NCBI GenBank assembly: GCA_001784175.1
Contig: MFPR01000012.1
Coordinates: 18,236-82,235, forward strand
Reading direction: 5' to 3'
Source of the DNA: Candidatus Lindowbacteria bacterium RIFCSPLOWO2_12_FULL_62_27
Lineage (GTDB): Bacteria > Lindowbacteria > 2-12-FULL-62-27
DNA length: 64,000 nucleotides
The notes under the pieces were generated by a model. It was not told where the DNA came from. It searched no databases and saw nothing but the letters and a program-made list of their open reading frames with translations. Positions 36,755 to 62,400 of the stretch are shown here, piece by piece. Both the position numbers and the translations under genes were made by a program. Positions within the stretch are counted from its first letter, which is position 1; each line of letters begins with the position of its first letter.

Positions 36755-37843
36755 TTATCGTCCATTCTCTTTACCTCGGTCCCGTCGCATGGTCTTGAAT
36801 AACATATCATCATGCTGATAACGGCTTTCGTTTTTATTTCGATTTTGCTCGTGGATTTCCTTCGAATACGTTGATTTCCGATTATTCTTTCCAGCAGAAA
36901 GATAGGAATAAAAAATGGATTCATCAAGAATGGGGAACAGCCCCATCAATCCCTCATCGAAGAAGGTGATGCCTATATGATTACGATGGAGTTTTACCAA
37001 CCACTTTTTCGTCTCTGGCTTCAGAAGGAGATCCCGATGAGAAAGATATTGGCTCGGTTGGACGACCGACCCTGTTACTGAGACCGATCCGCTGTTTTTT
37101 TCAGAAAATAATAACTGGGGGATGATGTCTTCTCCATACCTTCCGAATAATTCCAGTTTTGATTTCACAATGTCTTCGAATTCTGTTGCCTTTTCGTCTT
37201 CGGCAATGATCACCCTCTTGTAAAAGTACATGAAGTGGTCATAGTCCGTATCGTTGTTTTGTTTCTCATCGATGTCACGATTATGAAAATATGCAATCAT
37301 GGCGCTTTCGATGGAATCGGCTTCAGTTGGAAGGGAGTCCAAAAATTTTTTATATTTGGTATGTCCTGGTGGTGGAGGCCAAATCCCGTGGGTAGTTAGG
37401 ATATGGCGTGCTGTTTCAGATGGTGTTCCGTATCCATGCCGTGCCGTCTCGATCAGAAAGTCAATCACAGAAGGAACCCTTCTGGCGGCATTCATCCCCC
37501 AGAAATCGTACAAGTCCGGGTATCGCCGTTCCATATCTTCAAACGATCTGGATGCCAGAAGCGCATTTTGTGCTTGTTTGAATAAAGCATGCCCTTCACT
37601 TAATTTGGCCCGTTTGGCATCTCTTGTTCCATCGGGACGATATTTCCACATGATGAGTTCTGACAAATGCAGTGTGTCATCTGCCGGCGTATTCGAATGG
37701 GGGTTTGCGGCTATAGAGAATTCATGCGTAGGGGGGATCCATTCCTCATTCATCAGTAATCCTTTTCTAAAGAGGAACATAAACAAAATAAATAGGACGA
37801 TTATCATGACTAAACAGAAGCTGAGCAATCGCAGTCTGAACAC
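36755..37843 (-). CDS. Membrane-anchored protein, candidate immunity protein for the RHS-M15 tip
   Basis: 362 residues from a GTG at 37843 that overlaps the RHS stop by one base (TAGTG), so the two are translationally coupled. Residues 8-26 form one strongly hydrophobic segment; the rest is soluble, and the N-in signal-anchor pattern puts it in the periplasm. I do not recognise a family. Lower GC than the housekeeping genes and the position directly after a toxin tip fit an immunity protein. The RHS tip carries a putative peptidoglycan peptidase, so periplasmic protection would make sense. This role is inferred. Confidence 0.6.
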   Translation of the reverse strand: MFRLRLLSFCLVMIIVLFILFMFLFRKGLLMNEEWIPPTHEFSIAANPHSNTPADDTLHLSELIMWKYRPDGTRDAKRAKLSEGHALFKQAQNALLASRSFEDMERRYPDLYDFWGMNAARRVPSVIDFLIETARHGYGTPSETARHILTTHGIWPPPPGHTKYKKFLDSLPTEADSIESAMIAYFHNRDIDEKQNNDTDYDHFMYFYKRVIIAEDEKATEFEDIVKSKLELFGRYGEDIIPQLLFSEKNSGSVSVTGSVVQPSQYLSHRDLLLKPETKKWLVKLHRNHIGITFFDEGLMGLFPILDESIFYSYLSAGKNNRKSTYSKEIHEQNRNKNESRYQHDDMLFKTMRRDRGKENGR

Positions 37844-40089
37844 TACGGGAATAAAGGCGGGAGTGGGTAGGTGGCTGGAAAATAGTTATATGTCTTACCG
37901 ATGGCATCAATGCTAAAGCGTGGATACATCCATGACGCCAATGGACCAAGCCCCACATGAATGTGCGGTTTCGGACCGCCGGGAATCTCAAATCCTACTT
38001 GATCAAATAATCCACTTGCCGACGCCAGCCGCGCCACACCCAATGGGTTTATGTCTTTGCCCTCGAACTTGTTTATTGCTCGAAAATCTGCGGCTCGACC
38101 TAAAACATGTAGATTTAACGGTAATTTTATGTCCAAAATGGATTGTTCTGCGGGAGTTTTACTGTAATAGCCGCTAATAATCTTTTGTTCTTCAAGTGTT
38201 CTATCACCACCTGTAACAATGAGATCAATCCCATGCTTGAAAGAAAAAAATCTTAGGCGGGCTAGTAGTAATTTGCTACTTATTTTGACTCCTTTGGAGA
38301 ATTGTAGCGGCATAGACAATTTAGGGAATCCAACTGACCCGAATCCGAGAATATCGATTCCCGCCAATGCCCCTCCTAACGTCCCTGAACTTCCCAATGT
38401 GCTTGCCATGCCCGCCAGCAAATGCCAATTTGTTTCGAAATCAAAGGCATCCCATGCCGAGCCGTCTTCGGAACCGGCGTCGCCATCCAATAGACAATGC
38501 GCATATGCCCTGTATCTTGGATTTCCCCTTAATCTTCTACTCTCCTCTTTCCTGAGATTCTCATCCCTGTAACTTCTCCAGCCCAACATCTCTTTCCAAA
38601 ATACATCGCATGTTACAATATCCTCCATTCGCTCGTCATTTCTGATCTCATGGCGCAGACCCATCGCGTCGGTGTTGGACACCGGGTTGTTCCCGAACGC
38701 CGCGTAGAGATTGATGCGCGACGGATCGGTCGCCTGCTTGGGTGTTGGGTCCTTTGACACGAACCTCCTTGCCTGCGCGTCATAAAAACGGTGTCGGAAG
38801 TAATACCAGCCAGTGACGGGGTCCTGCATCTTGCCTTGAAATCGCGTGTGATCGACGGAGTCGGCGGTCTGCATGGCGCCGTAGGGATCGATGGTTTCCA
38901 GGCTTTCGAGAAGGTTGCCGAATTCATCGCGGACAACTTTCGTAGGGAGATTCGCGGCAAAGTCCGAATAGATAGCCGTTTTCCGCGCGGCGAGATTTTC
39001 CTTCACGATCACATCGTCCTGCATCCGCGTGGGCGTGTATCGCGCCAGCACGTTGCCGCCGGCATCCATCTCCGCCAGAATATTCTCGCTCGTTACGTCC
39101 CACACGAACCTTCGGTCGTCATTGACCAGACCCGCGTCTTTCTCGATACGCCGAACCAATCGGCCCTGCGGATCGTACGTGTAATCGACGCTGACGCGGC
39201 CCTTCACGGATTTGATCAGACGGTCGTTCCCATCCCACGTGAAAGTGATCTCCATGCCCTTGACCGACTTGCCGTTCTTTTTCACCTGTCGCATGGCAAC
39301 GGCCCGGCCGTTGGCGTCATGCACGTATTCGAAGATTTTGCGCTTGCCATGTTTGCCCTTGACGATTTCATCATCGTCCTCGCCATCGTCATCCGCGTCC
39401 GGCTTTGCGCCGTGTTTCCCCTTGCCCTTCCCTAGATTGTCCTCGTCGTCGTGGTCTTCGTTGTTGCCATGTCCCTTGTTTTTTCGTTTCTTGAACGTCA
39501 CAACCTCGCGCCGCGCCAGACGGTCGGCCGCGTCAAAGGTCTGGGTGATTTCCTCGTCGTTGTCTGTGATTTTCGTAAGATTGCCGCGCGAGTCGTACGT
39601 GTATTGAAAATCGATCCCGTCAGGGCGCGTTGCGCGGATCAGCCTGTCGGAGTTGTCGTACGCGTAGGTGAATCGTCCCTCACCCCTGCCCTCTCCCCCA
39701 AGGGGAGAGGGGGATTCTACGTAGCCGATGGCTCGGCCGCGCGGATCGTATTCCCACGTCCGAATGAATATCTGCGCGCCGAGGCGGTGCGTCTGCTTTA
39801 AGATCCAGCCGGCTGCGTTGTATTCCTTCTCTACAACCTCGCCGTTGGGAAGCGTCCTCTTTTTTTCGCGATCCTTGGAGTCGTATTCGATCGCGGTGAC
39901 GCGGCCCGCTCCATCGACCACCTTAGTCACGTGCCCATGAGGGTCGTACTCGTATCGGACGGAAATCCCGGCAAGACCGCTTAGTCCCGTAATCCGGTCT
40001 TTGGCATCCGACGTGTAGGCAAGCCCGCCAGCCACTGTACCGGAAAACAATACCACCCGACGCGATTTCGAGGGCCGACTCGTCCGCAA
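37843..40089 (-). CDS. RHS/YD-repeat protein with C-terminal M15-type peptidase tip
   Basis: 748 residues without a signal peptide or normal RHS N-terminus. YD repeats start near residue 30 (YTSDAKDRITG, YEYDPHGHVTKV). A very charged Lys/Asp-rich stretch (about residues 205-260) interrupts them. The RHS core end (GWYYFRHRFYDAQARRFVSKDP) is followed by NLYAAFGNNPVSNTD and a tip. The last ~130 residues contain TGGDRTLEEQ, LNLHVLGRAADF and PHIHVGLG, matching zinc ligands and catalytic pattern of M15 D-Ala-D-Ala carboxypeptidases. A family-1 repeat is translated in frame near residue 125-138. The frame appears broken from its leader at about 40045, so it may be an inactive or displaced tip. Confidence 0.75.
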   Translation of the reverse strand: MRTSRPSKSRRVVLFSGTVAGGLAYTSDAKDRITGLSGLAGISVRYEYDPHGHVTKVVDGAGRVTAIEYDSKDREKKRTLPNGEVVEKEYNAAGWILKQTHRLGAQIFIRTWEYDPRGRAIGYVESPSPLGGEGRGEGRFTYAYDNSDRLIRATRPDGIDFQYTYDSRGNLTKITDNDEEITQTFDAADRLARREVVTFKKRKNKGHGNNEDHDDEDNLGKGKGKHGAKPDADDDGEDDDEIVKGKHGKRKIFEYVHDANGRAVAMRQVKKNGKSVKGMEITFTWDGNDRLIKSVKGRVSVDYTYDPQGRLVRRIEKDAGLVNDDRRFVWDVTSENILAEMDAGGNVLARYTPTRMQDDVIVKENLAARKTAIYSDFAANLPTKVVRDEFGNLLESLETIDPYGAMQTADSVDHTRFQGKMQDPVTGWYYFRHRFYDAQARRFVSKDPTPKQATDPSRINLYAAFGNNPVSNTDAMGLRHEIRNDERMEDIVTCDVFWKEMLGWRSYRDENLRKEESRRLRGNPRYRAYAHCLLDGDAGSEDGSAWDAFDFETNWHLLAGMASTLGSSGTLGGALAGIDILGFGSVGFPKLSMPLQFSKGVKISSKLLLARLRFFSFKHGIDLIVTGGDRTLEEQKIISGYYSKTPAEQSILDIKLPLNLHVLGRAADFRAINKFEGKDINPLGVARLASASGLFDQVGFEIPGGPKPHIHVGLGPLASWMYPRFSIDAIGKTYNYFPATYPLPPLFP
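39677..39716. repeat. Family-1 palindromic repeat inside the RHS-M15 gene
   Basis: CCCTCACCCCTGCCCTCTCCCC / GGGGAGAGGG hairpin, translated in frame as about ESPSPLGGEGRGEGRF between two YD repeats. Confidence 0.75.
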
Positions 40090-40366
40090 CCTCTTGTGAA
40101 ATCGCGGCTAAAGGGGGAAGGGATGATTCATAAGTGCCTGAAAAAAATTCCGAAATTTTGGGCGACCCCCCTAAGCGAGTTTTGAAAATGCGGAGAACAT
40201 TTTCGGCGTGGAGATCGGACAAGAGATGATCGGCGAGGAAATTCAAGCGTGGGTCCGTCGTGTGGGTGGGTTCGTCTAACACTTCCGCCGTGGCGATCAT
40301 CGAGGGAAGTCTATCGCATGGCGGTGGGAAAATCAATCGGCGCGTTATGCGGCGCGTCATGCCCAC
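40045..40366 (-). pseudogene. Leader segment of the RHS-M15 gene, out of frame with it
   Basis: The frame starting at 40366 encodes a ~100-residue soluble segment containing SPKISEFFSGTYESS and PLAAISQEVADES. The same motif (SRKISDIFSTAYEDT, SPLAE) lies in frame at the start of the other tip gene at 48234-49523. At about 40045, near a run of four T on the coding strand, reading must shift to enter the RHS frame (SGTVAGGLAYTSD). Either a recent frameshift, a cassette-joining scar or programmed frameshifting. Confidence 0.5.
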
Positions 40367-40404
40367 GCGTTATGCGGCGACTTGGCGTTTTCCTTACAAA
40401 TGAT

Positions 40405-40617
40405 TCAGGCGGCCTTCGAGAAATGGCGGCGGGCGTATTCCGTGATCTTGTGCATGTCGTCCAGCGAGTAGACCTGTTCTCCGCAGTCGCCGCACTCCCA
40501 ATAGGTCGCGCGTGGAACGCGAATCTCCCGACGACGATGGTAATGCGTCAGCGCACCGGTCTTCCGACGGAAATTTTTTGAATCGCAGGTAGGACAGGTT
40601 TTAATTTTTAGTTCCAT
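40405..40617 (-). CDS. YgiT-type zinc-finger antitoxin (MqsA-like N-domain)
   Basis: 70 residues with two CxxC pairs (CPTCDS near the start, CGDCGEQ) separated by a basic, His-rich stretch, then a helix (YSLDDMHKITEYARRH). This is the zinc-binding, toxin-neutralising part of MqsA-type antitoxins, without the HTH domain. It overlaps the end of the preceding toxin-like gene by 17 bases, toxin first as in mqsRA. Confidence 0.75.
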   Translation of the reverse strand: MELKIKTCPTCDSKNFRRKTGALTHYHRRREIRVPRATYWECGDCGEQVYSLDDMHKITEYARRHFSKAA

Positions 40618-40945
40618 GCCGTTCTCCTTCCCAGTTTTCTCTCGATAGTTTCGCCGAAATCAGAAAGTAGAAAATTTCCTCGCCGGCTTTTTTCCGTATG
40701 GTGCCTTTGGAATATATCTCGATTCCCGAGTTTGTCGGGGCTACAATGATGTAAACCCGCTCGCGCGGATGTCGGCGGTGTTTGCTTCTCGACCGCTTGG
40801 CGCGAACTTCCGTGGCGTTGAGAATGGATTCCACCCCGTCGTCCTCCGTCAGATCGTCCAACGCCAACTCGATGCGGGCTTTTTTAGAGAACACCACTTT
40901 CCCCGTTGTTACCAATTCTTTGATCCGGGTCAGCACGTCATCCAC
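40601..40945 (-). CDS. DUF4258/MqsR-like toxin
   Basis: 114 residues from GTG 40945 (GTG 40936 also possible). The segment SKKARIELALDDLTEDD followed by ERVYIIV, IYSKGTIRKK and YFLISAK matches the DUF4258/MqsR-like RNase-fold toxins found beside YgiT zinc-finger proteins. It starts 33 bases after the integrase stop. Likely cleaves mRNA and stabilises the mobile module. Confidence 0.7.
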   Translation of the reverse strand: MDDVLTRIKELVTTGKVVFSKKARIELALDDLTEDDGVESILNATEVRAKRSRSKHRRHPRERVYIIVAPTNSGIEIYSKGTIRKKAGEEIFYFLISAKLSRENWEGERHGTKN

Positions 40946-40977
40946 TATCGAGAGATTACCCCGATCCTCCGTCGAAA

Positions 40978-41961
40978 TCAATCGGGCGGTCTGGAGATCG
41001 CCGAGTCCGCCGGTCCGGCGGGTTTCATCTGCGCGGCGGGGTGCGTGGCGGCGTGGATTTTTTTGAGCTGATCGATGACGACGTGGGTATAGCGTTCGGT
41101 GGTGGCGAGTCCCTTGTGCCCGAGCATGGCCTGAATGAAACGGATGTCGGCGCCGTTTTGGTGCATGTGAGTGGCGAAGGTGTGGCGGAAGATGTGGGAG
41201 GCGCCGCGTTTTTGGATGTCGGACTTGCGAAGGTATCCGCGGATCCATCCGTTGAGCCGGTTGCGCGGGATTTGTTTGCCGGTGTTGGATACGAATAACC
41301 AGCGCTCGTCCGGAGCGGCGACGAGCTTGTGGCGCGCGTCCTGGGTGTAGGCCGCGATCCACTGCAAGGCGCGCTCGCCGATGGGCACCACGCGATCCTT
41401 GCGGCCTTTGCCTTTTCGCACGATCACCACGCCCTGCTCGCGGACGGCGTCGTCGATCTTGAGGTTGCAAATCTCCATCCGCCTAATTCCCGTCGAGTAG
41501 AACGTCTCCATGATCGCGCGATCGCGCAGGCCCTGGGCGGTGGCGAGATTGGGCTGCGTCAAGACGCGCTCGATTTCTTCGCGCGACAAAAAGTCCGTCG
41601 GCAGCGTGTTGTCCCGGCGCGGGATGTCGATGTCGGCGGCCGGATTATAGAGGACGAGATTTTGGCGGATGAGCCAGCGGAAAAACGATCGGATGTGGAC
41701 GAGGATGGTTTGCTGATAGGCGAGACTGAGGGGGCGGTCGGTTCGCGGGTTGATCGTGTGGAACAGGTGGCGCTGATAGCGTTCGAGGATCGGGCGGGTG
41801 ATGTCGGTCGGCCGGAAGATGCCGCGTTCTTCGCACCAGGCGAAAAATTTCCGCATGCTGTATTGCGAGCGGTTGATCGTGTCCTCGGAGTGGCCTTTGA
41901 TGCGCGACGCCTCGGCGAACTGCTCGAAGCGCGCTTCGAATCCGGCCGGATCGCGGGGCAT
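40978..41961 (-). CDS. Tyrosine recombinase, XerC/D-like (module B)
   Basis: 327 residues. The SAM-like N-terminal DNA-binding domain spans about residues 8-110. The catalytic domain has Arg in STGIRRMEI, Lys in GKGRKDR, HxxR in HIFRHTF, His in MLGH and the nucleophile Tyr in TERYTHV. It has a short C-terminal tail. It lies 26 bases after the primase gene. Closely related in sequence and position to the recombinase at 50265-51266. It probably integrates or resolves the module. Confidence 0.92.
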   Translation of the reverse strand: MPRDPAGFEARFEQFAEASRIKGHSEDTINRSQYSMRKFFAWCEERGIFRPTDITRPILERYQRHLFHTINPRTDRPLSLAYQQTILVHIRSFFRWLIRQNLVLYNPAADIDIPRRDNTLPTDFLSREEIERVLTQPNLATAQGLRDRAIMETFYSTGIRRMEICNLKIDDAVREQGVVIVRKGKGRKDRVVPIGERALQWIAAYTQDARHKLVAAPDERWLFVSNTGKQIPRNRLNGWIRGYLRKSDIQKRGASHIFRHTFATHMHQNGADIRFIQAMLGHKGLATTERYTHVVIDQLKKIHAATHPAAQMKPAGPADSAISRPPD

Positions 41962-41987
41962 TCGCCGCTAAGGGAAGGGAAATTTTA

Positions 41988-44900
41988 CTACGACGACACC
42001 GTACTACGACGGCGGCCGTTTCCCAATATATGCGTTTTGGCCCAATTTTGCATCAGCGCGCGGGAAGCTTTCGAGGCTGTGAGGATTGCGCCGAAATTTG
42101 GCTTCCGCGAACCCGCCGCGAACCCACCGTTTTGAGGCCGTTTTGATACCGCGAGGTTGGGCTTTTCAGCCGCGAGGTGGCTGTTTTCCACCGCGAGGTT
42201 GGCGTCGTAGTTGAATGGCTCCGGCGTTTTCAGGGTCGTAACATCAATCAAACCCGGACAAAACTTGCGGCCGTCCTTGCCCTGGCCGTCGTAGAGCAGT
42301 TCATACTCGAACGAGATCCCGCGCGCGCCGCGATGGATCAGGACGTACTCCAGGTCATCCAGTTTTTTCATGTGGTCTTTCACCTGCGTGGGACTCATGC
42401 CCGCGTAGTCGCGCACGTCGCGGCGGGTGAATCGGACGTTTTCACGCGGGACGTTTTGTTCGGCGGCGCGGCGGGTCACGAGGTCGTCGAGGATCAAGAG
42501 AAGCCGACGCGTGGGCGCCGGCATTTCGTCCAGGGACCGGCCGAGGATTTCATCGGCCAGTTTATTCGCCGCCGCGATGTCCTCCGGCGTCGATTCGATC
42601 ACTTGGACGGTCTTGCCGCCGATTTTGACGGGTCGAAGCGGGCGTTGATACTGGTTGAGAAGCGTGATCGACAAAATGAGCGTGAGATATTTGGGATGGT
42701 CGCGGCGGGTTCGGATGCACGTGTCGTTAAACGTCAACTGGTCGGCGTAGGGGTTGATGACTGGCAACGGCCGCAAGAGGCGCTGGGCGTTTCGATGCCG
42801 GCGCAGGATCGCTTCGCGCTCCGCCAGCCGCACAAGTCCGGCGAGGGTGTGGCTCTGGCGCTGCATGTCGTGGATTCGTTTCGTCTGGTCCCGATCCTCG
42901 TTGACCGTTTCGATCAGCATCCGGTTCATGAGTTCTTCCGCGATGTCCAGCTTCGTCGTCGTCATAAACACGCTGGCGGGGCCGGGCCTTTCCTTCCGGC
43001 GCGCGATGAGGTTGCCGGTTTGCGGGTCTTTGATGGTCGCGGCGATGACGAGTTTGCCGTCGCTCATGAAAAGTTTGATGGAGTAGCCGGCCTTGGCGGC
43101 GCCTTCTTCCTCCGCGATCGCCAGAATTTTGTGCCGGAGATCCACGTCGTCGAGATAAAAGAGGGCCTGACCCGTCATCGCGCTGAAGTCAACGACGTCC
43201 TCCGGCGGCATGAGGGACAGGATCGCGTTCATGACTGCCGTTTTGCCGGCGGCGGTCATGGATTGGACCAGCAGGTGGAGCGGCGCATCGAGTTTTCTGG
43301 ACGTGGCGGCGATGTATCCGGCCAGGAGGTTCGTCGTCTCGCCCACCATGCCGATGGATTCGAAATCGCGCGCGATTTGGGCGAGCAGGTCGGGCGATTT
43401 CAAGAACGCCAGCGCCTCATCGCGGTCCGCGTCGGTCATCGGCGGCGGCGCGTCTTTGGGCGCGAGTTTCTTTTGAATGAGCGCGTCCCGCATCACTTCG
43501 AGTTTGAGCAAGAGTTTCCGAAGGTCATCCTTGAGTACATTCTCCGGAAGGCTCATCTCCACGGCGGCGGCTTTGAGAAAGGCCGCGCGCAGATTGGCGT
43601 TGGCCAGGTCAAAGGTGTGCATATGGTAGCGATTGCCGCAGCTGACGCTGACGTTCAATTTCAAAACGCTGTAGCTCGTGTTTTTCTCCAAGTCCCGGAT
43701 CCGCCACGCGCGGCCGTCAAACGCCTCGTCCAGCAGATGGTCGTTGCCGGCCGGGATCGCCGCCGCCTCCGGCTCCGCAAGGGCCTCCGGCGGCCCACAC
43801 GGGTGCATGTCCGACGCGGCCGGATCGGGCGGCGCCGGCGTCAGGGCTTCGATGGGCGCCGCCGCTTCGGGCGCGGCTAAAGGAATGGATTCATCTTTTT
43901 CCTTAGTTGCCGGCGCCGGCAGGACCGAAGGCGCAGAATCGGCGCGGGCCTGCGCCGGCGGCGCCGTCGCGCAATTTTTGCAGAGCCACGCCGCGCCGCG
44001 AAGGAGCGCCCCCAGCGCGTCGGCCGGATCGGAGACGGCGCGCGCGAAGTCGTTCGCGTCCTGGCCGTGCGGAAACTCGACGCGGAAACACTCAAAGCCC
44101 CGCGCGCACAAGATCGGCGCGAGCTTCGCCGCAGCGCGCTCGCCGGCGTCGTCGCGGTCGTAGGCGATCAACACTTTTTTGATTCCGTATTTTTTGAACG
44201 CGGCCAGATGATCCTGTGTGAATCCCTCGATCCCGTAGCTGGCCGTGACGTTGCGGTATCCCGCGCACCAGAACGTCAGCGCGTCGATCAACGCCTCGCA
44301 CAAAATCACTTCGGTGGATGCGGCCAGGGCCGACACGTTCCAGACGCCTTTGTGCGGCCCGGGCAAATACAAATGTTCCGGGGCGTCCCGGCTGGTCTTT
44401 TGGATTCGACGGCCGTAGATTTCGGTCACGGCGCCGCTTTCGTCGAACACCGGAAACTCGACGCAGCCGCAAAAATGTTCCCGGAACGTTTCCCGATAAA
44501 TGCCCAGACGCCGCAGCCGGTCCCGAAGGTCGCGGCCTTCCTTCACCGCCGAAAACGGCAGGCGATAGCCGAGCGTGCGGTTGGCGTAGCCGAGTTTGAA
44601 ATGGTCAAGGGCGCCGGCGTGGCCGATCCGCCGGCGTTCGAGGTAAGCCAGCGCGTCCGGCGAGTCTTTCAGGGTCTCGTGATAGAACTCGACGACCTGG
44701 CGCAGCGCCGTTTGATCGTCGGCGGTTCGTTCGATGGGCGGCGGAAGTTTTTTGACGGAGAGGGCGACCGGCGGGCGTTTGGGGTTGATCTGCGACAGCG
44801 CCACATCATGGCGGCGCAGAAGTTCGACGGCGTGCGTGAAGGACACGCCCTCCGCTTTCATCACCCACGCGATCACGTCGCCTCCGGCCTGGCACGCGCC

Positions 44901-45198: not shown

Positions 45199-45232
45199 TT
45201 GACTTATAGACCATTTGGTCTATACTGTCAAG
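45199..45232. promoter_or_regulatory. Overlapping divergent promoters with a shared palindromic operator
   Basis: Plus strand: TTGACT (45199-45204), 16 bases, TATACT (45221-45226), for the XRE gene. Minus strand: TTGACA (45232-45227), 17 bases, TATAAG, for the primase operon. The spacer is the palindrome TATAGACCA-TT-TGGTCTATA (45205-45224), an obvious operator for the XRE repressor controlling both directions. A second hairpin, GCCCGATTTCGGGC, lies in the primase leader at about 45119-45132 and is conserved in module A. Confidence 0.8.
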
Positions 45233-45277
45233 CGTTATTTTGGAGAGGGTCTATCTGCAACTAAAAGGAGGAATACA

Positions 45278-46581: not shown

Positions 46582-46658
46582 CCAAGTTTGTGCCAAGGCC
46601 GGCCAGTTGCGCAGGGGATCCGGAAGCGTGGATTTATCTTTCAGCTACCTGCTTTTGA

Positions 46659-54200: not shown

Positions 54201-54392
54201 CGCGCCGAAACAGTGCCAGAGGTTTTTGTCAGGCGTGATGACAAGAGACGGGTTGTGATCGTTGTGGAAGGGGCACAGGCCGATCAAGTCCTTGCCATGC
54301 GGCGCGAGTTCGACGCCGCGCCGCCGCGCGAGGTTGGCGACGGCAACGGCTCGTTTGATTCGTTCAAGCTCTTCGTCAGGAATCCGTCCCAT
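51294..54392 (-). CDS. CHC2 zinc-finger / TOPRIM primase with ATPase domain (module A)
   Basis: 1032 residues from the ATG at 54392, matched to the module B start (MGRIPDEELERIKR); an upstream in-frame ATG at 54446 is less likely. Zinc finger CPFHNDHNPSL / HCFGAC, TOPRIM LIAYDRDEAGDRAA, Walker A SASAAGKTTLMD, Walker B-like HKILAIVEEKG, Arg-finger region NRVLVITINEDREQT. A family-2 repeat is read in frame in the linker (DIGTCGAGGADPA, about residue 410-428). The C-terminal tail is low-complexity Arg/Ser/Gly/Pro, from tandem CCGGACC-like words. Same order of neighbours as module B. Confidence 0.88.
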   Translation of the reverse strand: MGRIPDEELERIKRAVAVANLARRRGVELAPHGKDLIGLCPFHNDHNPSLVITPDKNLWHCFGACQDPKGGSVIDWVRKAEGVSFRQAVELLRRHDVALTPATARPVVKVGTVKKLPCPIPIGASDQTALRCAVDFYVETLKDSPEALAYLERRRIGHAGAIDHFKLGYSNRTFGYYLADSNRDEGAKIRGQLQRLGVYSVKGHERFNGSIVIPVMDENGSITEMYGRKIRDDLRDGTAYHLYLPGPHKGVWNVSSLAASKEAILCEALIDALTFWCAGFRNVTASYGVEGFTADHLHALRMSEVEKVLIAYDRDEAGDRAATKLAAILMGYGFEVSRVNFPDGEDANSFACSVSDPADALGVLLRGAAWIGRGKSSIVDMPVAAKEKISPPSAAEESPGEKSLTPAAPDPADVGDIGTCGAGGADPAAADLHECAPLEAHARPEAAAIPSGNGHQLDEVFDGRAWRIRGIEKNTTYGVLRVSVRVSIGDRFHLDTVDLANARHRAAFLKAASTETSLSEDMLKDDLRRLLLKLEELQDNLIQKAINPPDATVTLTEAEKEEALAFLRAPDLLDQIVKDFESIGIVGEEVNALTGYLACVSRKFKDPLAIIIQSASAAGKTTLMDAILSLMPKEEREQFSAVTGQALFYMGEKNLKHKILAIVEEKGAENATYAIKLLQSEGKLVIASTGKDPTTGKHVAFESRVEGPVVIIITTTNYEIDEELLNRVLVITINEDREQTERIHELQRERETLEGVLRQERRDDILRRHQNAQRLLRPIRVVNRYAKQLKFLSTQLRTRRDHPKYLTLIRSIALLHQYQRPVKQTQDGPRVISYIEVMPKDIEGANRIANVVLGRSLDELQPQTRRLLTLLDDMVTAKTNGGKITRAAFRFGRRDVREFTGWSDTPLKIHMARLVEMEFLILHRGRGQSFVYELIYDGQGKDGAPFCMGLIDPATLEQPYDGDRSWQNADRSGSEGSRSGSGPGAVRPRSGGGPGVDSSATPTTPTASNALLKNRAKTHIKEKDAKRPKTAS
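53110..53164. repeat. Family-2 twin-hairpin repeat inside the module A primase
   Basis: Lies in reverse orientation relative to the copies in carA, purQ and the P-II fusion, with several substitutions (for example GATGTC-GGA-GACATC, stems still paired). Compensating changes in the stem support selection for, or origin by, pairing. Confidence 0.75.
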
Positions 54393-54492
54393 ATTTCCCG
54401 TATCCACCGATCCGCCCGAAACGGGCGTTTTTTGAAAATGTGTCAATGCCGGGTGGGATAATTTTCGAGACGATTTAACCCACCCGAAAACC

Positions 54493-54605: not shown

Positions 54606-54635
54606 ATGAAGGTTTGCTTTCTGGAGATAGTATAA
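54606..54635 (+). other. Possible nine-codon leader peptide coupled to the XRE gene
   Basis: ATG at 54606, directly after GGAGGTG, encodes MKVCFLEIV and stops at a TAA that overlaps the XRE ATG (TAATG). Spacing of the ribosome site is short, so this may be chance. Confidence 0.25.
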
Positions 54636-55015
54636 TGAAACTACAGAAACCGAAGCCGGAGACTTTCGGATTCCGTCTACAGCAGTTTCGGCTGCAACGG
54701 GGTCTGACTCAGGCCGAGATTGGGAAGAAGATCGGGCTGTCGCTGCGGATGCTGAGCTACTACGAGGGCAACCACGGCCGCCTTCCGCCTGTCGATGTCG
54801 TGATGAAATTGGCGAAGGTGATTCGTGTGCCTGTTGACGATTTGCTTGGCGCCGACGCCTCCGACTTCGGGCCGCCGCCGCGTTCCGTCAGGCTGCTAAA
54901 GAGATTGCGCCGGATCGAGCAGCTGCCGCGCCATCACCAGCGAGCGATCATGGAACATTTGGACGCGCTCCTGGCAAAACGCGCCAACGGCAATGGCCGG
55001 CGCGTGACTGCCTAA
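54635..55015 (+). CDS. XRE-family transcriptional regulator (module A)
   Basis: 126 residues from the ATG at 54635 (GGAG 10 bases upstream). HTH: RGLTQAEIGKKIGLSLRMLSYYE, then a helical tail with RRIEQLPRHHQRAIMEHLDAL, similar in layout to the module B regulator. Divergent from the primase, so a likely switch of the replication-recombination operon. Confidence 0.88.
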   Translation: MKLQKPKPETFGFRLQQFRLQRGLTQAEIGKKIGLSLRMLSYYEGNHGRLPPVDVVMKLAKVIRVPVDDLLGADASDFGPPPRSVRLLKRLRRIEQLPRHHQRAIMEHLDALLAKRANGNGRRVTA

Positions 55016-55390: not shown

Positions 55391-56144
55391 CCCCAAAGCA
55401 AAACCAAACAGAGCAGGGCGTATTAAAGTCGCCCCGCCTGGGCAGAAGTGTGGGCACGGCCCGCTCGAATTGTGGGCGATGACCACTTACACGTAGAACG
55501 CGCCGGCCTCTCGCGCCGCGAAAAACGCGCGGCGCACGGCCGGCGCTCCGACGACGAGCGGGGCGGACCGCGCCCCCCGCCGCAGGTTCTCCTCCCCTCA
55601 ACCTCTCCTCTCCTTGGCATCCCTGTAATAAGGAAGCATCAATGAGGGGAGGAGACCCAGCTCTTGGGGGGCGCTACGCCGGCGGCCTCCGTCCCTCCGC
55701 CGAACATGTGGCGCAACGTCCTGTTGCGCCACCGGCTCCGGAACTCCGGCCTTGTCGTTCCGCCCCGAACTTCCCGCACACGCGGGCCTCACTGACACCT
55801 GAGCTTGTACGGCGGGGCGAGAATCCGCTGTAGGAGACCCATCCATGGGGCGGCGTCACTGACAATCTGGGGTGACGCCGACTGGCCGGCGGACATCGTG
55901 TCCGCCGGAAAGAAAACGGCGGCTAAGAAAAAAGCCGGGCACAAGCGCGGCCGCGCCGGAAGCGTTGCCGGTTCCTTCTTTCAGCTGCGGGTTTCCGGTT
56001 TCAGGATTCGCGCGGGACACGATGTCCCGCGCACAGCTTCAAGCCATGGACGGCCGTGCGGGCACTTCGTGACCGCACCCGAAAGACGGGGTGTCGGCGT
56101 GAGCGGCCACGAATGTGGCCGCGCCGGGAAATCAGGATTTCCCG
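55391..56144. repeat. Third hairpin array at the right end of module A
   Basis: It starts with the same exact 26-base word as 45923 (55391-55416). Further hairpins: GCGCCGGCC...GGCCGGCGC enclosing GCGCCGCG/CGCGGCGC (55500-55546), TGGCGCAACG/TGTTGCGCCA near 55706-55729, CCGGCGGACATCGTGTCCGCCGG (55886-55908), GCGCGGGACACGATGTCCCGCGC (56010-56032), GCGGCCAC-GAAT-GTGGCCGC (56103-56122) and CGGGAAATC/GATTTCCCG (56125-56144). Each has a counterpart, often with different stem bases, in the arrays at 45.9-47.5 kb. No gene is supported. Confidence 0.7.
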
Positions 56145-56199
56145 CACGCCGAATGATGCAAAAGCGTTGCGAGAGGCGCAGACCCAAAGACGGCGACAG

Positions 56200-56406
56200 G
56201 GCGCTGAACGTATCCGGCGTAAACGTCACCCCGGTGAGCCGGTCCAGCGCGTCGTAGCCGTACTGCCGCGTTCCGTGCCGGTCCGTCATGGCAGTGCGGT
56301 TGTCGTTTGAGTTGTACTGATACCGGAAAAAACTCGTGAGCGCGCCGGCGTGCAGGTGTTCGATATCGGTCACCCTGTTTTTCGAATCGTATTTCCATTC
56401 CGACAC
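56200..56406 (-). pseudogene. RHS core fragment
   Basis: About 68 codons of YD-repeat sequence (WKYDSKNRVTDIEHL, YQYNSNDNRTAMTD, YGYDALDRLTGVTF) with no RHS start or tip. Downstream it runs straight into the hairpin array at the word GCGTTGCGAGAGGCGCAG. It is a leftover core piece upstream of which another tip cassette ends, marking an old recombination point. Confidence 0.65.
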
Positions 56407-56870
56407 CAGCTTGCCCCCTTTTCTTTCCTACTTTTGCTAGGGCAGAAAATAAGAAGTATAGTCAAAATAATTGCGAAAGCCACAACAAAAATATGCACGC
56501 ACGTCAAAAACAAAACAAAATTAATGGTACCCATAGTACCCAAATAATTGTCTAGTACATAATTATATTTTGATAAGATATTATTTACAAAAATAGGAAA
56601 ATCGCTATTATTAGAATACATGAAATAATGCACGAAAATGAAAAACGATATCGACCAGCAAAACAAGATGATATAATTAATCAGAATATTCGAATTCCGC
56701 TTTCTTATAAGAAAATAAATTAAATGCGCAACGATTAAGAAAAGGTTACCCGCTGCCAAGATCACCCTATCGTCGATAGATTTAATAAATATACCTATAA
56801 CAAAAACAGATATATACACCGACACTATGAAGCGGGGAAATTCACGCAACGAAGAATAATCAAACTTCAC
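56370..56870 (-). CDS. Multi-pass membrane protein, candidate immunity protein
   Basis: 166 residues from a GTG 3 bases after the tip-gene stop. Four membrane segments are evident (FIVSVYISVFVIGIF, LFLIVAHLIYFLI, IILFCWSISFFIFVHYF, FVLFLTCVHIFVVAFAIIL). Very AT-rich compared with the region. The last ~15 codons overlap the RHS fragment in another frame, so the natural C-terminus was probably replaced at a junction near 56410. Immunity to the 56873 tip is inferred from position. Confidence 0.6.
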   Translation of the reverse strand: MKFDYSSLREFPRFIVSVYISVFVIGIFIKSIDDRVILAAGNLFLIVAHLIYFLIRKRNSNILINYIILFCWSISFFIFVHYFMYSNNSDFPIFVNNILSKYNYVLDNYLGTMGTINFVLFLTCVHIFVVAFAIILTILLIFCPSKSRKEKGASWCRNGNTIRKTG

Positions 56871-56872: not shown

Positions 56873-57748
56873 TTATAAATCTGCTTGTAAATCTTGTGGA
56901 ACTGAAGATTTGATTAACTCATAGGCTTCATCATTTGTACTAAAGTTCTGCCTCAACCATGTCCAATCCTTGTCCTTACCTTCTTCGATAATTTTCTGCA
57001 GATTAGTTCTAAATGTTGTTACACTAGTCTCTAATCCTTCCAACGTCGTTTTCTTTGATGCGGATATATTACCGGTTAGTGCACTATTAATGTTTCTCAG
57101 CATTTGAGAGGCCTTCGCATTTAATAAGTCTAGTTTGGATTTATATATTGCTTTCAATAATAATTTAAAGCCATATGCGGCCACACTAACTACTATCGCA
57201 CTAACAACCAGTTTCTCGATTAGTGTAAGCTGCCCGAACGGATCCACAGAATTAATAGGGTTTCCTTCTGTATATGTATACTTGTGATGGGTTTTAGGTT
57301 GATCAAGAGATTTAAATACGTTTTCGGACTGTAAGAAATTCCCGCCAATAGGATCATAATATCTAGCGCGGTAAAAAATGAGGCCAATTTCATCATCGTG
57401 TTCCCTGCTGGTATATCCATAGATGTCGGACGGTGGCGTTTCGGTAGGATCGTGACCGGATGGAAGCAGGATTCGCTTTCCGTAGGCTTTATAATCGTAT
57501 GTTTTTACGGTTTCGCCTGTCGGGGTCAAAACTTCACGGACAGAATTTTGGGCGTCGTGCAAAAAGAAAAATTTTGCCGGCGGCGCTCTTGTGCCCGATG
57601 TTCCTTGTGTATATGCAATCAGCGGTTCATCGATGCCCGGCCCATGGGTGAAAAAGTGATACCTGTCAGGTGCCCGTTGCCGTCGCGCTGATAGCCGACG
57701 GATCCTTCGGGATTGGTCATCCGGGTCAGAACCTCTCCTCCGGCCCAC
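56873..57748 (-). CDS. RHS tip segment of the main RHS gene, displaced by a frameshift
   Basis: RHS similarity begins at about 57664 (YHFFTHGPGIDEPLIAY); codons before that are an out-of-frame reading of the main RHS gene. It contains FLHDAQNSVREVL and the core end YGYTSREHDDEIGLIFYRARYYDPIGGNFL, then the tip: a hydrophobic helix (LVVSAIVVSVAAYGFKLLL) and a mostly helical, AT-rich C-terminus ending PQDLQADL. The tip is not recognised; membrane attack is possible. Confidence 0.7.
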   Translation of the reverse strand: MGRRRGSDPDDQSRRIRRLSARRQRAPDRYHFFTHGPGIDEPLIAYTQGTSGTRAPPAKFFFLHDAQNSVREVLTPTGETVKTYDYKAYGKRILLPSGHDPTETPPSDIYGYTSREHDDEIGLIFYRARYYDPIGGNFLQSENVFKSLDQPKTHHKYTYTEGNPINSVDPFGQLTLIEKLVVSAIVVSVAAYGFKLLLKAIYKSKLDLLNAKASQMLRNINSALTGNISASKKTTLEGLETSVTTFRTNLQKIIEEGKDKDWTWLRQNFSTNDEAYELIKSSVPQDLQADL

Positions 57749-60700
57749 TCCCGCGTCTCCGTCCGAACCGCGCCCGACGGCGAGCGGGTGGTCTGCTCCA
57801 CCAGGTTGCCAGACCCGTGATATTTGTTGGTGATGATCGTGCCGTCGGGATCGGCCTGCTCGATGAGCCTGCCTTGACTATCGTATTTGTAGCGGGTGGT
57901 TTGTCCTTGCGCGTCCGTCATGGAGATGCGGTTTCCGAATCCGTCGTAGGAGTACGTGTTCACAAGGGCGCTGTCGGCAAAGACGGACGTGAGGTTGCCG
58001 TATGCGTCGCGGCCGTACGTCCAGACATGACCCTCCGCGTCGGTCATTCCCACGCGCCACCGGCTGCTCCAGCGGTAGGTCGTGATGTCGGCGTTGTTGC
58101 GACGCATGACAACAGGATTTCCGTGCTCGTCATATTCGATCTCGGTGACGACGTCCTGAGGCCCCGATCCGCCGCCCAGCGTTACGCCTGTCGTCCGCGT
58201 TTTTGTGAGATCGCCATGCTCATTGTATGAAAATTCCCGGACACTGCCATCGGGGTCGACCGTCCGGGTAACGCGACCCTGAGGATCATATGAAAAATTC
58301 GTGGTGTGGCCATCGATCGTCTCGGAAAGAATCCAGCCCTCCTCGTTGACGACGCGGCTTGTGCGGCTTCCTAGGCTGTCCCTGCGTTCGACGATGTGTC
58401 CGGCTTTATCGTAGGAAAAATTCTCGACAAGGTCGCCCCTCTTCTTCTCTAAGAGCCACCCTTGCGTGTTGTAGCGCCGCTCAACCGGCGGTAGGCCGCC
58501 CACCACGCCCAGCCTAGTCAGGTTGTTGTTGGCGTCATACTCGGCCTCCATCTCCATCGCGATGCTCTCGCGGCGGATGCGGTTTACCCGCCCGGCAAGA
58601 TCGTATGAAAAATGCGTGGCATGATCTCCCGTTTGAACATCCGAAAGACGGCCGGTCCCGGCTTCATAGACAAAATCCGACGTGTAGGCGTGCGGCCCGC
58701 TCTGCGCAAGAATGCGGGTAAGACGGTTTAATCCGTCATAGGTCGCGGACAACGCGACGGTGGGATCGGCGGAAGTTGAGCCTTGAGACGTAAGGCCGGT
58801 GATCAATCCACGTCTGTTGTACGAAAGATTCGTCGTCAGAGGCGAAAGTCCGGGCGAGGCGCGGACATGCCGGGTCAGGCGGCTTTCAGGATCGTAGGTC
58901 ATCGCCTCCGCTTCGGCCCCGTCCGAAAATTGCGTGAGATTTCCCAGCGCGTCATAATTCATGGACGTTGCGCGCGGGTTTGCCGATCCACGGATCATGG
59001 AGGTCGGGCGATTGAGCTGATCGTACCCATAGGAAATCCTGAGGCCGTCCGGCCGGCGCTCCTCAATCATCAGGCCACGCTCGTCAAAGGAGTAGTCTGT
59101 TCGGACGGCGCCGACGCCGCTTACGTTTCTCTGAACGGAGGCCAGTCGGTCAGAGGCTGCGTACTCGAAGGCGATCGTTTGCCCGTTGGGGCTGGAAATT
59201 TCCGTCACATTTCCCCAGCCGTCGTACGCCACAGCCGTGACGAGGTCGGATTCATCCCCGCCAAGCGCGACGCCTACCGTCCGGAGGGTCGCGGGCCGGC
59301 CCGCGTCGTCATACGAAAAAAGTGTCGTGCCGCCGGGGCCTTCCTCTTTGTCGGGCAGGCCCATGGATTCTTTTGTTCCATAGGTCAAGGTTGTTGTAGA
59401 TGCAGGCGTCGTCACGCGGCTTACATTGCCATTCGCGTATTCCAGCGCGGTCGTGCCCCGTGCCGGGTCCGTCATGACGGAAACTGTTCCGTCGGCGTTT
59501 CTTCCCACGGAAAACGCAATATCCCCGCTTTCGGATTTCAGAAAATTTCCGGCGGAGTTGTAGGCGAAATTCACAGGAGAGGATGAAATGCCCTCCAGTC
59601 GACCCGGGTGGTTTCGTTTCGGATCGAAATCATCAAGGTTGTCTGGGTAAGTCCACGTGACAGGATCGGAGCCGGTCCATCGGGCCAGGTTCTTCATGCG
59701 GTCGTATTCGAGAGAGATCGCGTGTCCGTTCGCCTCCACGATTTGGGACGGTCTGCCCAGCGTGTTCCACTGAAGGGTTGTGGCCGCGTTATGTGGGTCT
59801 GTGACTGCATCGATCCGGCCCCCACCGATGGGCTGTCCGGCGAGGTCGAAATTTCGCCACGGGTCGTACATGACGGCCGTGAACGCGCCCGCCGCGTCGA
59901 TCAGGCTGGTTTTGTTTGTCACGATCCCGCTTGACGGCTCGTACGCGAGGCTCAAGCGCCCGTCCGGCGGGGCGATGGAGATCGCGCGGTTGAAGGGGTC
60001 GTATGCGACTGAAACCTGATGGGGGCCTTGGCGAACTTCCGTCATAAAGCCGGCAGGAGCGTAGGTGTATTCTATCGGGTCCCCGGCCGGCCGCGCCACA
60101 CCCGCCAGCTTGGCCGTTTCGTCGGGACGGCCATCCACATATAAATACAAATATTGAAGCAGGCGTCCCATTGCGTCGGTGATTTTCGTGATGAGCTGTG
60201 ATCCGGGGAGATATTCAAAAAGCAGCGTCCGGGACGTGCTGGCGGAAACGACCTGCGTGAGACGCGCCTCATCGTCGTAGTCGAGGTCGACGGCGTTGCC
60301 GTTCGGGTCCTCGATCCGAGTAAGCTGGGCGATCCGCGTCCGTCCTTGGAGAATATCGAAGGTATACCGCGTGCCGTCCTTGCGGGTCATCTCCAGACGT
60401 TTTTCGGAAGTCTTGCGCAGGCGCATCGGTTCCGCGCCCGTTCCGGTGACCTGTCGATACTCGATCAGTTCACGTCCGTCGACGATCGTTTTCTCGATCG
60501 GCCACGGCCGGATGAACGTGTGACGCGTGCCGTCCTCGTCGATCAGGATCACCGCCGTGTCCAGCACATGGGTCATCAGACTCATATCCCAGTATGCCGC
60601 GTCGTCACCCACGATCAGGAGATTGTAGTTGTGCGTCCAGCCGCGCCCGAAAGGGAGCGGGACCGGCTCGGCATCCGGTGCGTCCTTTCGCAGGACGTTC

Positions 60701-62400
60701 AGATCCTGCGTCATGTCCATGCCGTTGAAGGTCCGTACGAGTCCGAGAAACGGGCCCACATTCACGTTCTCGACGTCCAGAGACTGGACGATCAGATTGC
60801 CGTTGGACACGTTCACCCCCGCGTCCTCCGTCGGCGAGGCGAAGGCCTGATCCGCCTCGATGCCGAGCATCGCCGGCAGTTCCAGGATGGCGGGTCGATA
60901 GTCCGTGACGGTGGTGCGCACCGGCCGGCCGACGGCCGCGCCGTCAATCCTGAGGCGAAGCTCATACGTCCCGGCTGGAAGTCCCGGCCGCGCAAAATGG
61001 CCGTCAGGATCGACAGGAATCGTCAGGTGCGGCGATTGCTTGTCCACGAGCGAAAACGGGTATTGCAAGTCGTCAAGGGCGAAGTAAAATCCGCGCCCAT
61101 CCTGCAGATGGCGCGCCTCGATTTCGATATTGGCCGGCATCTGTCCGTAGGGTGAAACAACCCTTCCAAAAACCACGTATTTGAATGTGCCCCACTGCGC
61201 CACGCCATCTTCGATCCACGACAACAGCACAAACCGATCGGCTGTTTGCAGGACTTCCAGCAGTGCGTCCGTATCCGCGCTCAGTCCGCTCAACACGAGG
61301 ATTCGATTGGGATCGGTGACAGGGGGCTGGAAAAACCGGCCATCCAAGTCTACCCGGCTCAGACCGAGATTGGCAGGCATCAAACGCTGTCCGAATCTGG
61401 GTTGATTCTTGCCAGTCCAGACAATCGCCGCGCCGGTCGGCCCGCCGCGCGCGACGTAAAAAACGCCCACAGCTTCCTGCGTGGTCCCGCCAAAGAACAG
61501 TTCCTCGCCCGTTTCGGGATCCACAAAAAACATGTCATCCGGATGGACGCCCAAGATGTCAGGCGGAACGGGATCATAACGATTCGTCGAGCGCGTGAAT
61601 ACGAAGGTTTGCGCTGGAGGATGCGGCTCCCGGGCACCCAGATCGGTTGAGAATTCAAACGTGAAATCCGCGTTCAGATGATACGCGCTCGTGAAGCAGT
61701 CCCGTTCCTCGCCGAGGGGTTGCGTTTGAAGAACGTCGGGCACGTATAGCCGCGCTGTAAGGACGGCGGGCGACAGGCCGTGATTGCCCTCTGAGACCGT
61801 ACCCAAATCACAGGTCGTCGGGCCGGGATCGTTCTGAATCGGGCCGTTGCCGATGAAATTGCCGTCGTGAATTTCACCTATCCCAATGCGGCCATAGACG
61901 TCCTGAAATTGGAAAAAATGCGCGTGATCCAAAAACGGATACACCAGACCGTTGCCCGCAAATATCCCCGATACATTGATCGTGACCACGTCCCCTCCCA
62001 GACGTGGTCCCACGTTGCTGAGATGCGCCGCAATGCGCGCGTCCAAATCAGGCGCATGCAGAATCTGAATCGGCAGATCAGGAAGGCCACCCGATGGCCC
62101 GGTACGGCGGAACTCATGAGCGGGAACGGATACCGGAAACAACATCGAAGTCAAGACTGGCGGATCGCCCACAGTATATTCGAGCGTGGCCGTCGACGAC
62201 GCCGGATTGGTGACCAGATACAGAATGTTGCCTTCCGTCATTCCTTCGAGGAACGGTCCCGTTACGAATTCGTTGACTCCGACCTGCGGCGCCGGCATTC
62301 TTGTCTGCACAAGTTCCGGAATGAGATCGCCGGCAAAGGCGCCCGTGGGAACCAGCGGAACCATCAAGACCACGAGAACATGGACAACAAATCCGGCCAT
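57619..62400 (-). CDS. Large exported RHS/YD-repeat protein
   Basis: 1593 residues from the ATG at 62400, which overlaps the upstream stop (TGATG). A signal peptide (MAGFVVHVLVVLMVPLVPTGAFAG) is followed by ~450 residues of unassigned ectodomain, a carboxypeptidase-regulatory-like beta domain (PDGHFARPGLPAGTYELRL), the RHS entry domain (RTFNGMDM, PFGRGWTHNYNLL), and then some 30 YD repeats to the end. The frame ends at 57619 soon after NGHLTGITF, and the expected tip continues in another frame (56873-57664). It likely forms the beta-barrel cocoon that carries a toxin tip. Export by Sec fits non-T6SS RHS proteins. Confidence 0.88.
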   Translation of the reverse strand: MAGFVVHVLVVLMVPLVPTGAFAGDLIPELVQTRMPAPQVGVNEFVTGPFLEGMTEGNILYLVTNPASSTATLEYTVGDPPVLTSMLFPVSVPAHEFRRTGPSGGLPDLPIQILHAPDLDARIAAHLSNVGPRLGGDVVTINVSGIFAGNGLVYPFLDHAHFFQFQDVYGRIGIGEIHDGNFIGNGPIQNDPGPTTCDLGTVSEGNHGLSPAVLTARLYVPDVLQTQPLGEERDCFTSAYHLNADFTFEFSTDLGAREPHPPAQTFVFTRSTNRYDPVPPDILGVHPDDMFFVDPETGEELFFGGTTQEAVGVFYVARGGPTGAAIVWTGKNQPRFGQRLMPANLGLSRVDLDGRFFQPPVTDPNRILVLSGLSADTDALLEVLQTADRFVLLSWIEDGVAQWGTFKYVVFGRVVSPYGQMPANIEIEARHLQDGRGFYFALDDLQYPFSLVDKQSPHLTIPVDPDGHFARPGLPAGTYELRLRIDGAAVGRPVRTTVTDYRPAILELPAMLGIEADQAFASPTEDAGVNVSNGNLIVQSLDVENVNVGPFLGLVRTFNGMDMTQDLNVLRKDAPDAEPVPLPFGRGWTHNYNLLIVGDDAAYWDMSLMTHVLDTAVILIDEDGTRHTFIRPWPIEKTIVDGRELIEYRQVTGTGAEPMRLRKTSEKRLEMTRKDGTRYTFDILQGRTRIAQLTRIEDPNGNAVDLDYDDEARLTQVVSASTSRTLLFEYLPGSQLITKITDAMGRLLQYLYLYVDGRPDETAKLAGVARPAGDPIEYTYAPAGFMTEVRQGPHQVSVAYDPFNRAISIAPPDGRLSLAYEPSSGIVTNKTSLIDAAGAFTAVMYDPWRNFDLAGQPIGGGRIDAVTDPHNAATTLQWNTLGRPSQIVEANGHAISLEYDRMKNLARWTGSDPVTWTYPDNLDDFDPKRNHPGRLEGISSSPVNFAYNSAGNFLKSESGDIAFSVGRNADGTVSVMTDPARGTTALEYANGNVSRVTTPASTTTLTYGTKESMGLPDKEEGPGGTTLFSYDDAGRPATLRTVGVALGGDESDLVTAVAYDGWGNVTEISSPNGQTIAFEYAASDRLASVQRNVSGVGAVRTDYSFDERGLMIEERRPDGLRISYGYDQLNRPTSMIRGSANPRATSMNYDALGNLTQFSDGAEAEAMTYDPESRLTRHVRASPGLSPLTTNLSYNRRGLITGLTSQGSTSADPTVALSATYDGLNRLTRILAQSGPHAYTSDFVYEAGTGRLSDVQTGDHATHFSYDLAGRVNRIRRESIAMEMEAEYDANNNLTRLGVVGGLPPVERRYNTQGWLLEKKRGDLVENFSYDKAGHIVERRDSLGSRTSRVVNEEGWILSETIDGHTTNFSYDPQGRVTRTVDPDGSVREFSYNEHGDLTKTRTTGVTLGGGSGPQDVVTEIEYDEHGNPVVMRRNNADITTYRWSSRWRVGMTDAEGHVWTYGRDAYGNLTSVFADSALVNTYSYDGFGNRISMTDAQGQTTRYKYDSQGRLIEQADPDGTIITNKYHGSGNLVEQTTRSPSGAVRTETREWAGGEVLTRMTNPEGSVGYQRDGNGHLTGITFSPMGRASMNR

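What the first reader, a model, noticed from the sequence alone, without database searches (positions are those of the whole stretch)
36755..62400. RHS toxin locus with two paralogous primase-recombinase modules separating tip/immunity cassettes
A full-length exported RHS gene is followed on the same strand by three tip segments, each with a membrane-protein gene right after it. Two modules with the same order (XRE, CHC2/TOPRIM primase-ATPase, tyrosine recombinase, toxin-antitoxin pair, leader-RHS tip) lie between them. Polymorphic-toxin loci often hold orphan tips, but tips attached to self-replicating, self-integrating modules are not something I know as a described system. I infer that the modules move toxin-immunity cargo and provide new tips for the RHS gene.
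Basis: partly seen in the sequence, partly recalled or inferred. Interest (0 to 1): 0.85.

Follow-up and report, generated by a model that had tools for sequence, protein, structure and literature searches.

The report
Mobile elements that swap toxin tips
This locus carries small self-copying DNA elements that insert at one fixed short sequence inside a bacterial weapon gene, bringing a new toxin end and its antidote and pushing the old end aside, which would explain how bacteria exchange the toxic tips of these weapons.

Summary
A large RHS gene is followed by three tip/immunity pairs, and two paralogous modules (XRE, CHC2-TOPRIM-ATPase primase, XerC-like recombinase, toxin-antitoxin pair, leader joined to an RHS tip) lie between them. 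A 17-bp sequence occurs exactly twice in the 4.39-Mb genome: inside the RHS gene where its tip begins, and at module A's leader-tip junction, 8,519 bp apart.

Full-length relatives (40-50% identity) lie at RHS and CdiA/FHA loci in Proteobacteria and in other phyla. In E. coli, strain KW21 carries a 7,789-bp unit exactly where JNE151685 has none. The unit sits at GACCCGATAGGG, which encodes DPIG. CDI loci use GTTGAGAATAAC, which encodes VENN, the known CdiA-CT boundary. At these sites codons are frozen, while a neighbouring DPLG motif varies freely. One 8.8-kb unit also exists as a circular record closed exactly at the core.

I conclude that these are replicating, site-specifically integrating elements whose cargo is a toxin tip plus immunity gene, and whose attachment site lies inside the toxin gene, so integration swaps the tip. 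Jackson 2009 and Poole 2011 postulated circular or VENN recombination but had no enzyme. Activity itself is inferred, not measured.

The parts
57619..62553 (-). main RHS gene, exported, N-terminal delivery part up to the junction
   Evidence: Pfam RHS_repeat E 1e-63, DUF6531
57637..57653 (-). core site copy 1 (TTTCACCCATGGGCCGG, FTHGP in the tip frame), proposed attachment site in the RHS gene
   Evidence: exact 17-mer shared with the leader-A/tip-A junction; only two copies in the genome
56873..57748 (-). tip 1, RHS-associated core plus variable C-terminus, in another frame than the main ORF in this assembly
   Evidence: TIGR03696 E 1e-13; frames
56370..56870 (-). tip-1 immunity candidate, multi-TM membrane protein
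   Evidence: sequence and position
55981..56406 (-). RHS-core fragment left behind the first immunity gene
   Evidence: RHS_repeat match, translation
54614..55015 (+). module A XRE-type regulator, divergent from the primase
   Evidence: translation; same position in relatives
51294..54446 (-). module A primase: CHC2 zinc finger, TOPRIM, P-loop ATPase
   Evidence: Pfam; ATPase half 54-60% identical across relatives
50265..51266 (-). module A tyrosine recombinase
   Evidence: Phage_integrase E 2e-39; NCBIfam NF002331 over cut-off
50077..50268 (-). module A PHD/YefM-like antitoxin
   Evidence: translation and position
49830..50090 (-). module A RelE-like toxin
   Evidence: translation and position
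48234..49523 (-). leader A joined in frame to RHS tip A
   Evidence: TIGR03696 E 2e-18 over residues 191-271
49118..49134 (-). core site copy 2, at the leader-A/tip-A junction; unit A runs from core to core (8,519 bp)
47677..48213 (-). tip-A immunity candidate, DUF3592 membrane protein
   Evidence: Pfam E 9e-12
45215..45694 (+). module B XRE-type regulator
   Evidence: translation
41988..45095 (-). module B primase
   Evidence: Pfam; 60% identical to A
40978..41961 (-). module B tyrosine recombinase
   Evidence: Pfam E 2e-43; 62% identical to A
40601..40945 (-). module B toxin candidate (DUF4258-like)
   Evidence: translation
40405..40617 (-). module B MqsA/YgiT-type antitoxin
   Evidence: TIGR03831 over cut-off
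39923..40366 (-). leader B ORF, resembles leader A
40035..40047 (-). leader-B/tip-B junction (TTTTCCGGTACAG); no second full copy found in the window
37843..40089 (-). RHS tip B
   Evidence: RHS_repeat and TIGR03696
36755..37843 (-). tip-B immunity candidate, one N-terminal TM segment
   Evidence: position and sequence

Best explanation
Each module is a replicating, site-specifically integrating element whose cargo is the C-terminal tip of a polymorphic toxin plus its immunity gene. One unit reads core-tip-immunity-XRE-primase-tyrosine recombinase-toxin/antitoxin-leader, and the next core follows. Excised, the unit is a circle in which leader, core and its own tip are joined. The recombinase inserts the circle at the same short core inside the coding sequence of a resident toxin gene, just upstream of the variable tip (FTHGP in this RHS gene, DPIG in enteric RHS, VENN in CdiA). 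The resident N-terminal delivery part is thereby joined to the incoming tip, and the old tip with its immunity gene is pushed behind the leader as an orphan. Repeated events build tandem arrays and loss of the enzyme genes leaves bare orphan arrays. The primase probably copies the circle and the toxin-antitoxin pair probably keeps it. Shown by sequence: unit structure, cores, filled and empty sites, tandem units, circular records, codon constraint at the core. Inferred: that the recombinase acts on the core, that the primase replicates the circle, that the tips are toxic and the membrane proteins protect.
For: Window: the 17-bp core occurs at exactly two places in 4.39 Mb, in the RHS gene and at the leader-A/tip junction. 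E. coli: JNE151685 has no unit. KW21 has 7,789 bp between two GACCCGATAGGG copies; the right flank matches over 12,938 bp at 99.7% starting exactly at the core, and R12 against SCU-111 differ by one further unit. Seven orphan junctions start at the same base. Enterobacter: exact 7,685-bp tandem units in cdiA with core TGTTGAGAATAAC. The E. coli C11 cdi orphan array has the same module at its base and VENN cores throughout. Circular records: the Shigella flexneri 8,758-bp plasmid equals one E. coli array unit closed exactly at the core, and Lonsdalea has 11,289 bp with two units. Codon constraint: DPIG is CCG 18/18, ATA 17/18, GGG 18/18, while DPLG 22 codons downstream varies freely; VENN is GTT 20/20, GAG 18/20, AAT 19/20. 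Association: 16 of 22 genomes with an RHS core within 10 kb, 0.7 expected.
Against: No recombination was measured. In the window the main RHS frame and tip 1 do not match, and module B's core has no second full copy, so this locus may be partly decayed or carry an assembly error. The two circular records could in principle be assembly products of tandem arrays. Leptospira plasmids carry the same primase-recombinase pair with ParA/ParB and no recognised RHS or CDI tip. A more distant relative (G144) showed no tip on its short contigs.
Confidence: 0.87

Rival explanations
1. Tip exchange is by RecA-dependent homologous recombination between conserved core sequences, as Jackson 2009 proposed, and the primase-recombinase genes are passengers caught between tips.
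For: Many orphan tips have no recombinase next to them; RHS cores are long and similar; some orphans keep longer core stretches (E. coli D6 has a 484-bp core fragment).
Against: The shared stretch at the junctions is only 11-17 bp and the leader side has no toxin homology. The breakpoint is the same base in seven E. coli and Shigella junctions, with frozen codons at that motif only.
Confidence: 0.07
2. The modules are ordinary integrative plasmids or satellites that use a conserved toxin motif as attB, and the tips are chance cargo or remnants of the target gene, with no tip-swapping role.
For: Leptospira plasmids have the pair without a recognised tip; targeting a conserved gene motif is common for tyrosine recombinases.
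Against: Units carry their own tip and immunity gene, differing from the displaced tip, with the core placed so that the tip is joined to the host gene. Association with toxin tips holds across unrelated groups.
Confidence: 0.05
3. The window's modules are dead relics and the shared 17-mer is ordinary RHS homology.
For: Frame offsets at two junctions; core B unpaired; FTHGP is a conserved RHS motif.
Against: Full-length primase and recombinase ORFs for both modules; the 17-mer begins exactly where leader and RHS N-part stop being alike, and occurs nowhere else.
Confidence: 0.2

Closest known systems
Rhs C-terminal displacement (Jackson 2009, PMC2935791)
   Same: Tips displaced downstream by incoming ones through circular intermediates; arrays of dissociated tips
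   Different: [quoted passage not shown] here an integrase, a primase and a fixed core are present
Orphan cdiA-CT/cdiI modules bounded by VENN (Poole 2011, PMC3150448)
   Same: Modules run from one VENN to the next; exchange at VENN suspected
   Different: No recombinase or element was named; here VENN DNA is the junction core of a primase-recombinase element
rAID immunity arrays of Bacteroidales (described in PMC12247911)
   Same: Tyrosine recombinase linked to arrays of orphan immunity genes
   Different: No toxin tips, no primase, no insertion into a toxin gene
Integron gene cassettes
   Same: Tyrosine recombinase builds arrays of exchangeable modules at a fixed site
   Different: Each unit carries its own recombinase and primase; the recombinase fails the integron-integrase cut-off (109 against 265 bits)
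Shufflon (pilV tip switching, from own knowledge)
   Same: A tyrosine recombinase switches the C-terminal end of a surface protein
   Different: Works by inversion of resident segments, not by integration of replicating circles
CDI mobile element of Burkholderia thailandensis (PMC6350997)
   Same: CDI genes on a mobile element
   Different: Moves a whole CDI locus as a transposon, not tips at a motif

Membership tests
Polymorphic-toxin orphan tip arrays (Rhs/CDI) | Full-length toxin gene followed by orphan tip/immunity pairs | tested here: met
Site-specific integrative element with tyrosine recombinase | Direct repeats of a short core at both ends | tested here: met
   17 bp in the window; 11-13 bp in relatives
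Site-specific integrative element with tyrosine recombinase | Empty site in a close relative | tested here: met
   E. coli JNE151685 against KW21; no close relative of the window organism is held
Site-specific integrative element with tyrosine recombinase | Excised circle with joined ends | tested here: met
   S. flexneri 8,758-bp record closed at the core; not testable for the window itself
Site-specific integrative element with tyrosine recombinase | Recombinase activity on the core | not testable with these tools
   bench assay needed
Integron | Integron-type integrase | tested here: not met
   TIGR02249 109 bits, cut-off 265
Integron | Cassettes without their own recombinase, moved by one shared integrase | tested here: not met
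   each unit has its own recombinase and primase
ICE or mobilizable element | Relaxase or conjugation genes in the unit | tested here: not met
   no such gene recognised in unit A or annotated in the circular records
rAID | Recombinase plus immunity genes only, without toxin parts | tested here: not met
   toxin tips present in the window and in most relatives with enough flank
Composite transposon | Flanking insertion sequences | tested here: not met
   no IS at the unit ends; ends are the toxin core
Phage satellite | Packaging or helper-phage genes | not tested
   PHROGs library not run; no full-length match in the phage collection

The most novel reading that the evidence does not exclude
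Primase-recombinase tip elements are a general engine of polymorphism in RHS and CDI toxins across bacterial phyla. VENN in CdiA and DPxG in RHS are conserved at the DNA level because they are recombination sites, and core-closed circles form a replicating episomal reservoir of toxin tips.
Probability: 0.6. Interest if true: 0.95.

Novelty: categorically new. Interest (0 to 1): 0.9.

Why it matters
How CDI and Rhs systems acquire new toxic tips together with the right immunity gene, and why exchange happens at VENN or DPxG, has been open since 2009-2011. The authors then postulated circles and recombination at these motifs but knew of no enzyme (PMC2935791, PMC3150448). The element described here supplies the integrase, the replication gene, the site and the circle, and makes the question directly testable in laboratory E. 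coli. It also removes the objection raised in 2011 that switching would lose the old immunity gene: insertion keeps it. And it suggests that a conserved protein motif can be a recombination site in disguise.

Tried and rejected
Genome-contig scan with the primase alignment found only one weak relative, and the viral scan gave only matches in the primase half at 23-48% identity, DnaG-like as far as seen. The full-length primase query in 60 relatives hit mainly housekeeping DnaG, so the ATPase half was used instead. The first empty-site attempts with tips of JNE120442 and SCU-111 found those tips only in a handful of genomes; the third tip gave the empty site. An exact shared core was not found in Janthinobacterium or Providencia, whose orphan tips do not match the neighbouring main gene. 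An inverted-arm structure like that of G757 was not evident at the window's core by eye. Defence (PADLOC) matches of the primase only reflect the shared primase domain. A defence island, an integron and a transposon were considered and rejected.

Full report
What is in the window. On the minus strand, a 1644-aa RHS protein with nine RHS repeats is followed by tip 1 and a small multi-TM protein, then by two modules of the same gene order, each ending in a leader joined to a further RHS tip with a membrane-associated protein behind it. The primases are 60% and the recombinases 62% identical. The genome has no further copies and no RHS genes elsewhere. Its phylum is represented by three held genomes and the other two lack the element, so local evolution had to be read from distant relatives.

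The junction. The leader of module A and the RHS N-part have nothing in common except that both end in TTTCACCCATGGGCCGG, after which an RHS tip begins. This 17-mer is present exactly twice in the 4.39-Mb genome even when two mismatches are allowed, with a chance expectation of about 0.001. The two copies delimit an 8,519-bp unit: tip 1, immunity 1, an RHS fragment, XRE, primase, recombinase, toxin-antitoxin pair, leader. Leader B aligns with leader A, but its junction has no second full copy in the window.

Relatives carry the same arrangement on different toxins. Full-length primase relatives at 40-50% identity are on plasmids of Janthinobacterium, Caballeronia, Paraburkholderia, Pseudomonas, Enterobacter, Salmonella, Providencia, Lonsdalea and Leptospira. 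In most the order is large toxin gene, immunity gene, divergent XRE, primase, XerC, toxin-antitoxin pair, orphan tip, immunity gene, and often a second unit. The large toxins are RHS, CdiA, FHA or TpsA types.

The core is the known boundary motif. In Enterobacter pJBIWA003_2, cdiA is followed by two identical 7,685-bp units, and the sequence shared by cdiA, leader-tip junction 2 and leader-tip junction 3 is TGTTGAGAATAAC. GTTGAGAATAAC encodes VENN, which is known to separate CdiA from its variable toxin (PMC3150448). In E. coli, Shigella and Lonsdalea RHS loci the core is GAYCCGATAGGG, encoding DPIG. G757 uses GTCCCAAGGGG at five sites, the four element junctions having arms TCCCCT and AGGGG(A/G) around a 6-bp spacer. 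That is the expected geometry of a tyrosine-recombinase site, although the arms at the DPIG and VENN sites are only approximate by eye.

Filled and empty sites. E. coli JNE151685 has the rhs gene with tip 3 and no element. KW21 has a 7,789-bp unit between two cores, and from the second core on its flank equals JNE151685 for 12,938 bp at 99.7% identity. R12 has one unit where SCU-111 has two. Flanks were compared, not joined.

Circles. The 8,758-bp circular plasmid record of Shigella flexneri SWHIN_104 equals the E. coli D6 unit between two cores: unit base 1 maps to circle base 4126 and the unit's last base to 4125. Lonsdalea populi has an 11,289-bp circle with two units and no other replication gene annotated. 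Assembly error from tandem arrays cannot be ruled out without reads.

Codon freezing. Across 18 distinct DPIG sites, proline is CCG 18/18, isoleucine ATA 17/18 (the exception is K-12 rhsE, which has no element) and glycine GGG 18/18. The equally conserved DPLG motif 22 codons further on, in the same genes, uses many synonymous codons. Across 20 VENN sites, GTT 20, GAG 18, AAT 19. This points to constraint on the DNA, not only on the protein. The sites are not independent samples, because the core itself travels with the tips.

Breadth. In 386 genomes sampled across the domain, six others have a match at E <= 1e-40. The five strong ones all sit next to RHS tips or an RHS-type toxin. In 396 genomes of one large phylum, 18 have it. 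In most loci with enough flank a tip follows or precedes the module; non-RHS tips include a Tle1-like phospholipase domain and an ADP-ribosyltransferase fold. Three loci on short contigs could not be judged. Of 22 genomes, 16 have the primase within 10 kb of an RHS core, 0.7 expected. RHS genes are common in that phylum (221 of 396), so mere co-occurrence in a genome would mean little; the proximity is the evidence.

Mechanism. I infer that the circle's leader-core-tip junction recombines with the core inside a resident toxin gene. The host's delivery part gains the new tip, and the old tip with its immunity gene stays behind the leader. The E. coli C11 cdi array, with one such module at its base and twelve further VENN cores after cdiA, suggests that classical orphan arrays are products of these elements after loss of the enzyme genes. 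The primase (CHC2, TOPRIM, P-loop ATPase) most simply replicates the circle, and the toxin-antitoxin pair or SymE-like gene maintains it.

Known work. [quoted passage not shown] Poole 2011 (PMC3150448) showed modules running from VENN to VENN and proposed recombination there. Zhang 2012 (PMC3482391) noted XerC/D beside some polyimmunity loci only. Nine searches of an open-access library found no description of these elements; subscription journals and preprints are largely not held, so prior publication is possible.

Limits. No activity was measured. The main RHS ORF and tip 1 are out of frame in this assembly. Leptospira pairs lack a recognised tip. Immunity and toxicity of the window's tips are inferred from position.

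Noticed in passing
36354-36453 (-): Purine riboswitch aptamer (67.8 bits, gathering 37) directly upstream of a class II ribonucleotide reductase gene at 33110-36370.
   Followed up: no
46430-46604, 47314-47361, 55883-56055: Palindromic GC-rich dispersed repeats (GGGACACGATGTCCC type) in the intergenic parts of both modules, REP-like.
   Followed up: no
L063, L064 (Leptospira plasmids): The same primase-recombinase pair occurs with ParA/ParB and HicA and no recognised tip; perhaps the element family became a plasmid replicon there.
   Followed up: partly
L088, L089, L090, L092, L112: In several other lineages the module has two tandem tyrosine recombinases instead of one.
   Followed up: no
L093, L094 (G144): A more distant primase relative lies with RadC-like and tyrosine recombinase genes on short contigs without RHS.
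   Followed up: no
L068, L070-L075 (E. coli, Shigella): Enteric units carry a SymE-family gene where other units have a RelE-type pair, and ISAs1 (H-repeat) elements sit inside some units.
   Followed up: no
46659-47216 (-): 185-aa protein between immunity A and module B with a C-terminal membrane segment and no family match; role unknown.
   Followed up: no
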